A stretch of 64,000 nt of DNA from Chloroflexales bacterium ZM16-3 (GTDB lineage: Bacteria; Chloroflexota; Chloroflexia; Chloroflexales; Chloroflexaceae), in the NCBI GenBank assembly GCA_004138175.2, contig RYFE02000001.1, forward strand, positions 1 through 64,000. Reading direction: 5' to 3'. A program made the translations under genes and the position numbers. Positions 14,614 through 41,564 of this stretch are shown here, piece by piece (within the stretch, counting starts at the first letter, position 1; every line of letters starts with the position of its first letter). The notes under the pieces are model-generated. The model was not told the DNA's origin. It saw only the letters and a list, made by a program, of their open reading frames with translations, and did not search any database.

Positions 14614-15348
14614 CTACTTCGTGTTCCCGGCCCGGTCCTCGCGCCAGCGGAAGACGAACTGCTTATCGCCTGCGCGGTCGTGCTTAAAGCGCCAGAGTCT
14701 CGTTGGTCGTCCGCGCCCCTCGCGCATCTGGGTTGTCTCCTCCAGCAGCCCTGCCTCCTTGATTTTGCGGTAGAAGTTGCCTTTGTCGAGCTCCTCTCCG
14801 AGGATCTGCTCATAGGTGTGCTTCAGTTCTAGGATCGAGAAGAGCTCTGGCAATAGCTGGAAGGCCAGGGTGGTGTACTCCAGCTTCGAGCGCAGCCGCG
14901 AGACCGCAAAGGCCAGGATCTGCTCGTGGTCGAAGGCCAGATCCCTGGGGAGCGCGCTCACCGGGAACCAGCGCACATCGTGGCTCTCGTCGCTCACCCG
15001 CAGGTGCTGGGCGTCGAAGCGCACTAGGGCGATGTAGGCCACGCTGATCACGCGCGTGCGCGGGTCGCGCCCGACATCCCCGAAGGTGAAGAGCTGCTCG
15101 ATGTACAGGTCGCGGACGCCCGTCTCCTCCTCAAGCTCGCGGCGGGCCGCCTGCTCCAGCGACTCGTCCATGTTGATGAAGCCGCCCGGTATGGCCCAGT
15201 GCCCCTCGTACGGCCAGCGCTTCCGCTGCACGAGCAGGACGTGTAGCTCGCGCTCAATCAGGGTGAAGATGACGACGTCTACCGTCACCGATGGGCGGTC
15301 GTACCGCGATGCGTCGTATGTGGTGGCTGTCTCTTCGCGCTCCTCCAT
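14614..15348 (-). CDS. nrtR: NrtR family transcriptional regulator (Nudix plus winged helix)
   Basis: This 244-residue protein has a Nudix domain with the box G-x5-E-x7-R-E-L-x-E-E-x-G (from GGFINMDES to EETGV) and a C-terminal winged helix (about 165-235; LDKGNFYRKIKEAGLLEET, GRGRPTRLWRF). This is the NrtR architecture. Characterised members repress NAD biosynthesis genes and are controlled by ADP-ribose or related nucleotides. The start at 15348 has AGGAG 7 nt upstream; a start at 15411 would lie upstream of the expected transcript start. The promoter contains an operator (15363-15385) shared with the nicotinamidase gene at 40851, so autoregulation is likely. The effector and any residual Nudix activity are unknown. 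Confidence 0.9.
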   Translation of the reverse strand: MEEREETATTYDASRYDRPSVTVDVVIFTLIERELHVLLVQRKRWPYEGHWAIPGGFINMDESLEQAARRELEEETGVRDLYIEQLFTFGDVGRDPRTRVISVAYIALVRFDAQHLRVSDESHDVRWFPVSALPRDLAFDHEQILAFAVSRLRSKLEYTTLAFQLLPELFSILELKHTYEQILGEELDKGNFYRKIKEAGLLEETTQMREGRGRPTRLWRFKHDRAGDKQFVFRWREDRAGNTK

Positions 15349-15362
15349 CGTGGTGCTCCTGT

Positions 15363-15385
15363 AATAGTGTTTAATGTACACTATT
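15363..15385. promoter_or_regulatory. NrtR operator upstream of nrtR
   Basis: Perfect inverted repeat AATAGTGT-N7-ACACTATT. It overlaps the -10 box of the nrtR promoter by 3 nt. The core TAGTGT-N7-ACACTA is identical to the site before the nicotinamidase gene at 40809-40831, with a different spacer sequence. Confidence 0.85.
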
Positions 15386-15411
15386 TTAGAGGCTCCACAG
15401 CATCTTGTCAA
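15383..15411 (-). promoter_or_regulatory. Sigma-70 type promoter of nrtR
   Basis: On the minus strand TTGACA (15406-15411) is followed by a 17-nt spacer and TAAAAT (15383-15388). The transcript would start near 15376, inside the operator. This rules out starts further upstream and supports the ATG at 15348. Confidence 0.82.
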
Positions 15412-39821: not shown

Positions 39822-39890
39822 GAAGGCGCTCCACGATTAAGAGGCGGATGTGCGTTGCATCTTACCATAGGCAAAGGGCAATAGGCAACC

Positions 39891-40020
39891 AGGAGTCGAG
39901 GGTTGGGGGTTGGGAGTCGGGAGTCGGGAGTTGGGAGTCGGGAGTCGGACTCCGAAATTCTCCCCTCATTTGCGGCTCGACCACTGACTCCCGACTCTCG
40001 ACTCCCGACTCCCAACCTCC
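39891..40020. repeat. GGGAGTC heptamer palindrome downstream of phoU
   Basis: Left tandem units (GGGAGTC, some GGGAGTT) at 39891-39950 face inverted CGACTCC units at 39982-40020, with a 30-bp unique centre. It starts 5 nt past the 3' end of phoU and ends about 70 nt before the beta-helix gene start. Same family as 31700-31855 and 50461-50690. Confidence 0.88.
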
Positions 40021-40025
40021 CAAGA

Positions 40026-40685
40026 TCAGTTCAGAGACTCAACGCTATTGGTGGCCAGAAAGATCACCCGCTCGCCGATATTCGTGGCGCGGTCGGCGGA
40101 GCGCTCAAAGGCGTGGATCACATCGAGCATGTCAATTGCCGCCTCGATCTTCTCTGGGTCAGACTTTGCCATAGCGATGATCTCGGCGCGCAGCTGATCC
40201 TCAAGATCGTCCACACGCTCGTCGCTCTCTGTTAGGCTATGAGCGAGGGCAGAGTCCTGGCGGAGAAATGCTTCTAGGCTCGTGTTCACCATCTGGACGG
40301 TGAGCGTTGCCATCTCCTTAATCGAGGGCGGTGGGGTGACAAAGGACGGGCGGCGGGTGGCCCGGCGCACACGGCGGGCGATGATGTTCGCATAGTCGCC
40401 GATCCGCTCAAGCTCGCCAGCAATTGCTGTGACGACTGTGATCAGCCGCAGGTCGCTGGCAACAATCGGCTGCTGGGTGGCCAGCAGATGGATGGTGCGC
40501 TCTTCAAGGGCGCGCCAGGCATCATCGATCTGGACATCATCGTTGATGATCTGTGTCGCCGCCGCAGAGTCCCATGTGTCGAGGCTGGCGATTGCTCGCA
40601 GGAGAGCTTGCTCGACCATGCTGCCGAGCCGAAGGAGATCCTCGCGCAGGCTGCCGATCTGACGTGTGTAGCGCTCGCGAACCAT
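40026..40685 (-). CDS. phoU: Phosphate signalling protein PhoU
   Basis: This 219-residue all-helical protein has the two PhoU half-repeats (about 5-95 and 110-205), with ELERIGDYANIIARR and FERSADRATNIGERV, the metal-binding E/D-rich motifs of the family. PhoU links the Pst transporter to the PhoR kinase and limits phosphate uptake. No pst or pho genes are adjacent. The start at 40685 has GAGGAG upstream; the longer ATG at 40709 lacks support. Confidence 0.9.
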   Translation of the reverse strand: MVRERYTRQIGSLREDLLRLGSMVEQALLRAIASLDTWDSAAATQIINDDVQIDDAWRALEERTIHLLATQQPIVASDLRLITVVTAIAGELERIGDYANIIARRVRRATRRPSFVTPPPSIKEMATLTVQMVNTSLEAFLRQDSALAHSLTESDERVDDLEDQLRAEIIAMAKSDPEKIEAAIDMLDVIHAFERSADRATNIGERVIFLATNSVESLN

Positions 40686-40781: not shown

Positions 40782-40810
40782 TTGACATCCTCTGTTCCGG
40801 CTGTTATAAT
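40782..40810 (+). promoter_or_regulatory. Perfect consensus promoter of pncA
   Basis: TTGACA (40782-40787), a 17-nt spacer and TATAAT (40805-40810): both hexamers match the sigma-70 consensus completely. The -10 box shares its last two bases with the NrtR operator, so repressor binding would block the polymerase. Confidence 0.93.
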
Positions 40811-40831
40811 TAGTGTCAATTATACACTAAT
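40809..40831. promoter_or_regulatory. NrtR operator upstream of pncA
   Basis: Perfect inverted repeat ATTAGTGT-N7-ACACTAAT. The core TAGTGT-N7-ACACTA is the same as at 15363-15385 before nrtR. It covers the region just after the -10 box, where transcription starts. Confidence 0.88.
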
Positions 40832-40850
40832 AGAGAGCTGGAGGTGAGTA

Positions 40851-41564
40851 ATGACCCGCACCATGAACCTGACAACCACAGCCGCGCCTTTCCTGAGCTA
40901 CCTGGATAGTTGGTATACCAACCTACCGAGCGCCGATCTTGCCACGATTGTCGGCGATGCGCCGGAGCGCGTGGCGGTCTTCTCCATCGACATGATCAAT
41001 GGGTTCTGCAAGCAGGGGCCGCTCGCCGGGCCACGGGTCGCTGCCCTGATCCCGGCGGTGGTTGACACCTTCACCCGTGCCCACGCGCTTGGCGTGCGCA
41101 GCCTTGTGCTCACCCAGGACACCCACGACCCGAACACGCCGGAGTTCGGCTTCTACCCGCCGCACTGCGTGGCCGGCACACCCGAGAGCCAGGCGGTGTC
41201 TGAGCTGGCCGAGCTGCCCTTCGCCGACCAGATCACCACCATCGAGAAGAACTCGCTGAGCTCGCACCTGGGCACAACCCTGGGCACTTGGATGGCCGAG
41301 CACCCGCAGATTGACACCTTCATCATCGTGGGCGACTGCACCGATCTGTGCGTGTTTAGCGCGGCGATGCACCTGCGTCTAGAGGCCAACGCCCTGAATC
41401 TCAAGCGGCGGGTGATCGTCCCCGCCGCCGCTGTGGATACCTTCGATACGCCGGTCGATGTCGCTCAGAGCCTGGGGATCATGGCTCACGACGGCGATCT
41501 GCATCACGTTCTGTTCCTGCACAACATGGCCCAGAACGGGGTCGAGGTGGTGACGATGGTGTAG
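40851..41564 (+). CDS. pncA: Nicotinamidase / isochorismatase-family hydrolase
   Basis: This 237-residue cysteine hydrolase most likely converts nicotinamide to nicotinate in NAD salvage. The catalytic triad is visible: D47 (VFSIDMINGF), K133 (IEKNSLSS) and C167 (GDCTDLCV). The metal site of nicotinamidases, D90-x-H92 and H105, is also present (TQDTHD, PPHCVAGT). A strong ribosome site GGAGGTGA precedes the ATG. The NrtR operator in its promoter supports the NAD role over other isochorismatase-like activities. An extra 40 residues at the N-terminus are unusual. The TAG lies inside a hairpin. Confidence 0.87.
   Translation: MTRTMNLTTTAAPFLSYLDSWYTNLPSADLATIVGDAPERVAVFSIDMINGFCKQGPLAGPRVAALIPAVVDTFTRAHALGVRSLVLTQDTHDPNTPEFGFYPPHCVAGTPESQAVSELAELPFADQITTIEKNSLSSHLGTTLGTWMAEHPQIDTFIIVGDCTDLCVFSAAMHLRLEANALNLKRRVIVPAAAVDTFDTPVDVAQSLGIMAHDGDLHHVLFLHNMAQNGVEVVTMV

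What the first reader, a model, noticed from the sequence alone, without database searches (positions are those of the whole stretch)
40782..40831. Nicotinamidase gene carries the same operator 25 kb away, on a perfect consensus promoter
Seen: TTGACA-N17-TATAAT followed by ATTAGTGT-N7-ACACTAAT. The core TAGTGT-N7-ACACTA equals the nrtR site and sits at the same place relative to the -10 box. Two independent matches of 12 fixed bases at the same promoter position are very unlikely by chance. This defines a local NrtR regulon (pncA, nrtR) and supports the nicotinamidase call for a protein that could otherwise be any isochorismatase-like hydrolase.
Basis: partly seen in the sequence, partly recalled or inferred. 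Interest (0 to 1): 0.75.

Follow-up and report, generated by a model that had tools for sequence, protein, structure and literature searches.

The report
NAD-repressor (NrtR) operator at nicotinamidase promoter

Summary
In detail: window 40782-40831 holds TTGACA-N17-TATAAT followed at once by TAGTGTCAATTATACACTA, and an exact match to the 12 fixed bases (TAGTGT-N7-ACACTA) lies at 15365-15383 before nrtR. The whole genome has five exact sites (about 0.02-0.06 expected). Four precede nrtR, pncA, pncB and the nadA-nadB-nadC operon; the fifth lies in a duplicated segment. In some 36 related genomes, 88 of 100 sites examined precede nrtR, pncA, pncB, a second NaPRTase-like gene or nadA. At nrtR, pncA and pncB the operator almost always starts at the last base of the -10 box or the base after it. 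In the order, pncA either has its own operator or lies downstream of nrtR, sometimes as nrtR-nadE-pncA; four of 40 loci show neither. The likely mechanism is NrtR repression by covering the -10/+1 region. Binding and the effector are not shown. This is a new member of a known kind (NrtR regulon). The unexpected part is that pairs of the same palindrome are conserved before an uncharacterised J-domain/VWA/PurA-like operon, and in four genomes before a vault-protein-like gene, which would extend NrtR control beyond NAD synthesis.

The parts
40782..40810 (+). sigma-70-type promoter of pncA: TTGACA-N17-TATAAT
   Evidence: geometry conserved in relatives
40811..40829 (.). predicted NrtR operator TAGTGTCAATTATACACTA, starting directly after the -10 box and covering the presumed transcription start
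40840..40847 (+). probable ribosome-binding site GGAGGTGA
   Evidence: read; inference
40851..41564 (+). pncA: isochorismatase-fold hydrolase, probable nicotinamidase (237 aa; D47, K133, C167; D90, H92, H105)
   Evidence: context
14614..15348 (-). nrtR: Nudix domain plus NrtR winged helix, with an intact Nudix box (ATG start inferred; the listed ORF runs from a TTG at 15411)
15365..15383 (.). predicted NrtR operator at nrtR itself (autoregulation): TAGTGTTTAATGTACACTA
15383..15411 (-). nrtR promoter TTGACA-N17-TAAAAT; the last T of the -10 is the first T of the operator

Best explanation
The palindrome is an operator of the Nudix-type repressor NrtR encoded 25 kb away. NrtR probably binds as a dimer over the -10/+1 region of the pncA promoter and blocks RNA polymerase. 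The same switch sits on nrtR itself (autorepression), on pncB and on the nadABC operon, so one regulator would hold back both the recycling of nicotinamide and nicotinate and the making of NAD from aspartate. By analogy with characterised NrtR proteins, a NAD-derived ligand such as ADP-ribose would release it. Shown here: the sites, their positions and their conservation. Inferred: binding, repression, ligand, and nicotinamidase activity.
For: Four of the five exact sites in the genome precede nrtR, pncA, pncB and nadABC, against about 0.02-0.06 exact sites expected. In related genomes 83 of 100 listed sites precede orthologues of nrtR (30), nadA (23), pncA (17) or pncB (13), and 5 more precede a second NaPRTase-like gene. 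The promoter-operator geometry is conserved at nrtR, pncA and pncB. NrtR is present in 60 of 61 relatives. pncA usually has its own operator or lies downstream of nrtR, in places as nrtR-nadE-pncA; only one of 40 Chloroflexales loci shows both and four show neither.
Against: No binding or expression data. Pattern-based search misses degenerate sites. Three stand-alone Chloroflexales pncA copies show no nearby site (L281, L282, L293; L293 is close to a contig end), and L313 shows neither a site nor nrtR. L281 lies on a contig of the same length as the pncA contig of G009, the one genome without a detected nrtR, yet G009 keeps exact sites. At nadA the operator does not sit at a recognisable -10, so the mechanism there may differ.
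Confidence: 0.92

Rival explanations
1. The palindrome is bound by a different repressor that happens to control NAD genes and nrtR.
For: The same palindrome, in pairs, also precedes non-NAD genes, so a second regulator with a similar site is possible.
Against: The site lies at the promoter of nrtR itself in nearly every same-family genome where nrtR was located, and nrtR is present in 60 of 61 relatives and often next to pncA. NrdR, whose box resembles the centre of the paired sites, is not supported: ACACWA-N4-TWGTGT occurs once in this genome, only within the pair before the J-domain/VWA operon.
Confidence: 0.06
2. The match is chance or an artefact of a repeated element.
For: One of the five exact sites (C49:10329) lies in a segment with a second copy 4.6 kb away.
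Against: Expected count about 0.02-0.06 per genome against 5 found; position at pncA conserved in relatives.
Confidence: 0.01
3. The operator is real, but the downstream enzyme is another cysteine hydrolase (for example a maleamate or carbamoylsarcosine-type amidase) rather than a nicotinamidase.
For: The best fold and sequence matches include non-nicotinamidases; the NCBIfam nicotinamidase model scores 21 bits against a cut-off of 174.
Against: Shared control with pncB, nadABC and nrtR; nrtR-nadE-pncA gene order; conserved D/K/C and D-x-H...H residues and a PPHC-x-x-GT motif.
Confidence: 0.1

Closest known systems
NrtR regulons of NAD metabolism (Rodionov et al. 2008, cited in PMC4666351; M. 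smegmatis NrtR, PMC6800001)
   Same: Nudix plus winged-helix regulator; palindrome with a 7-bp centre (GTTTTCGA-N7-TCGAAAAC in M. smegmatis); autorepression; nadABC control; ADP-ribose as ligand in characterised members
   Different: Different half-site (TAGTGT); pncA and pncB are predicted direct targets; the Nudix box is intact, whereas PMC4666351 calls it impaired in NAD-type NrtRs; possible extra targets outside NAD synthesis
AraR of Bacteroides (NrtR family, PMC4666351)
   Same: Same protein family and domain order; PDB 5bs6 is the second-best sequence match
   Different: AraR controls arabinose genes; here the targets are NAD genes
Bacterial nicotinamidase PncA (PDB 3pl1, 3s2s, 5zn8)
   Same: Isochorismatase fold, candidate D/K/C triad, D-x-H...PPHC metal-site motif
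   Different: Low overall similarity; longer N-terminus; activity untested

Membership tests
NrtR regulator family | N-terminal Nudix domain plus C-terminal NrtR winged helix | tested here: met
   PF00293 1.8e-24 and PF21906 3.5e-22; NCBIfam NrtR model 200 bits, below its cut-off of 400; closest solved structure 3gz5
NrtR regulon of NAD metabolism | Palindromic operator shared by nrtR and NAD biosynthesis or salvage genes | tested here: met
NrtR regulon of NAD metabolism | Direct binding of NrtR to the operator and release by a NAD-derived ligand | not testable with these tools
   needs a binding assay
Nicotinamidase (PncA) | Isochorismatase fold with Asp-Lys-Cys triad and metal ligands | tested here: met
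   D47, K133, C167, D90, H92 and H105 invariant in 23 orthologues; residue roles assigned by comparison with PDB 3pl1 and 3eef; fold matches
Nicotinamidase (PncA) | Scores above the curated nicotinamidase family cut-off | tested here: not met
   NF008623: 21 bits against a cut-off of 174
Nicotinamidase (PncA) | Hydrolysis of nicotinamide to nicotinate | not testable with these tools
   enzyme assay needed
NrdR box | Tandem ACACWATATMTWGTGT-type boxes (consensus from memory) before ribonucleotide reductase genes | tested here: not met
   ACACWA-N4-TWGTGT occurs once in this genome, only before the J-domain/VWA operon

The most novel reading that the evidence does not exclude
NrtR in Chloroflexales controls more than NAD synthesis. 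Paired operators of the same palindrome are conserved at the promoter of an uncharacterised operon (J-domain/kinase-like protein, VWA-like protein, adenylosuccinate-synthetase paralogue) in all nine genomes with an essentially full-length VWA gene, with degraded copies in two more, and at a major-vault-protein/band-7-like gene in four. NAD status would then switch on an unknown NAD- or ADP-ribose-linked system.
Probability: 0.5. Interest if true: 0.65.

Novelty: new member of a known kind. Interest (0 to 1): 0.4.

Why it matters
It gives a compact, testable NAD regulon for Chloroflexales and assigns an ambiguous hydrolase as the probable nicotinamidase by regulation and gene order. It also shows how a gene of an nrtR-nadE-pncA operon, once separated from nrtR, can carry its own copy of the operator (direction of change inferred). 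The paired sites at genes outside NAD synthesis point to an unexplored system that may respond to NAD or ADP-ribose.

Tried and rejected
Chance: rejected. NrdR as binder of the paired sites: not supported. A riboswitch in the nadA leader: no meaningful Rfam match, though the leader folds better than shuffles (z -2.9). The fifth genomic site (C49:10329) as a regulon member: rejected, duplicated segment. Identity of the hydrolase from fold alone: inconclusive. The AlphaFold model of the VWA-like protein was too poor to use (pLDDT 48). The NrtR founding paper is not held. RegPrecise 3.0 has a Chloroflexi collection, but whether it lists NrtR could not be checked.

Full report
What is there. At 40782-40831 the window reads TTGACA-N17-TATAAT immediately followed by TAGTGTCAATTATACACTA, then a Shine-Dalgarno-like GGAGGTGA and an ATG at 40851. 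An exact match to the same 12 fixed bases lies at 15365-15383, before nrtR on the minus strand, where the promoter is TTGACA-N17-TAAAAT and the operator shares its first T with the -10 box. The two sites differ by one base pair in register.

More than chance. The genome (6.27 Mb, 127 contigs) has five exact sites and none of the reversed pattern; a Markov estimate is 0.019 per genome and an independent-base model gives 0.063. Besides nrtR and pncA, one site precedes a nicotinate phosphoribosyltransferase (NF006695, 608 bits) with TTGACA-N16-TATAAT, and one precedes nadA-nadB-nadC, whose leader also holds two one-mismatch sites. The fifth is inside a segment with a second copy 4.6 kb away on the same contig and is discounted.

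Comparative test. Relatives in the same family mostly carry 2-5 exact sites each, while the reversed control mostly gives 0-1. Of 100 distinct sites whose surroundings were read, 83 lie just before orthologues of nrtR (30), nadA (23), pncA (17) or pncB (13) (the one duplicated entry removed), and five more precede a second NaPRTase-like gene. The list of sites was cut off by the tool, so this is a sample. At nrtR, pncA and pncB the operator almost always starts at the last base of the -10 hexamer or the next base, with a TTGACA-type -35 16-18 bp upstream. That places the operator over the presumed start of transcription, which fits repression by blocking polymerase. At nadA the geometry differs, and a promoter with TTGACA-N17-TATACT can be read upstream, so the sites may act from within the leader.

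Gene context of pncA. In related families pncA sits close downstream of nrtR, in several genomes with a glutamine-dependent NAD synthetase between them, and one operator-like palindrome stands before nrtR. Among 40 Chloroflexales-type loci (L274-L313) pncA has either its own site with at most one mismatch or nrtR upstream in the same locus; one has both and four have neither: L281, L282, L293 and L313. L281 lies on a contig of the same length (75,934 bases) as the pncA contig of G009, the one genome in which no NrtR was found. The motif also appears before pncA homologues in some Anaerolineae and Thermoflexia records.

The enzyme. Pfam places it in the isochorismatase family. The candidate triad D47, K133, C167 and the metal-site residues D90, H92, H105 are invariant in 23 orthologues (residue roles assigned by alignment to PDB 3pl1 and 3eef). 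The AlphaFold model (pLDDT 82) matches the cysteine-hydrolase superfamily, nicotinamidases included, but sequence and fold do not single out nicotinamidase, and the NCBIfam model is far below its cut-off. The nicotinamidase call therefore rests mainly on regulation and context.

The regulator. The protein has a Nudix domain and the NrtR winged helix. Its Nudix box (GFINMDESLEQAARRELEEETGV) matches the full consensus, as it does in nearly all relatives in which the script could read it (the script stopped before finishing its list). PMC4666351 describes the box as impaired in NAD-type NrtRs, so an enzymatically active NrtR is possible here. In characterised members ADP-ribose releases the protein from DNA (PMC4666351, PMC6800001); this is assumed, not shown, here.

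An unexpected extension. Pairs of the same palindrome, 21-25 bp apart start to start, lie at the promoter of an operon with a J-domain/kinase-like protein, a VWA-like protein without a Pfam match (the name rests on my reading of a MIDAS-like FDVTGSM motif), and an adenylosuccinate-synthetase paralogue (a second, canonical PurA is present). The pairs, some with one or two mismatches, occur in all nine genomes with an essentially full-length VWA orthologue and, in degraded form, in G010 and G006, where the gene is split or a remnant; a 46-aa fragment in G027 has none. In the window's genus the second site directly follows a TATACT -10 box, as at pncA. Similar pairs precede a major-vault/band-7-like gene in G000, G004, G007 and G015 and an Hsp70-like gene in G015 and G026. 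Whether NrtR binds these is open.

Verdict. Observation confirmed, interpretation supported and enlarged; a new member of the known NrtR-regulon kind, with a lead toward non-NAD targets.

Noticed in passing
L221 1-4000 (G000:C78) and L235-L246: Paired NrtR-like palindromes conserved before an uncharacterised operon: J-domain/kinase-like, VWA-like and adenylosuccinate-synthetase-like genes.
   Followed up: partly
L222 6588-8040 (G000:C2), L248, L249, L250: Paired palindromes before a gene with major-vault shoulder/band-7 similarity, in four genomes; absent before the homologues in family f3.
   Followed up: partly
L224, L225: Paired palindromes overlapping the -10 of an Hsp70-like gene in two related genomes (G026, G015).
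   Followed up: partly
L227 7033, L228 1628, L230 7810: Exact sites before short ORFs that begin with hydrophobic, membrane-like segments, in three relatives.
   Followed up: no
L008 2142-2310: The nadA leader folds better than shuffles (z -2.9) and carries short GC-rich hairpins followed by T-runs, also seen in relatives; no Rfam family.
   Followed up: partly
window 14614-15348: The NrtR Nudix box matches the full catalytic consensus, in contrast to the impaired box reported for NAD-type NrtRs.
   Followed up: partly
L183, L181, L188, L194, L195: A second, diverged NaPRTase-like gene carries the operator in five relatives.
   Followed up: partly
window 39885-40030: Runs of GGGAGTCGGGAGTTGGGAGTCGG-type short repeats in an intergenic region, with an inverted copy nearby.
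   Followed up: no
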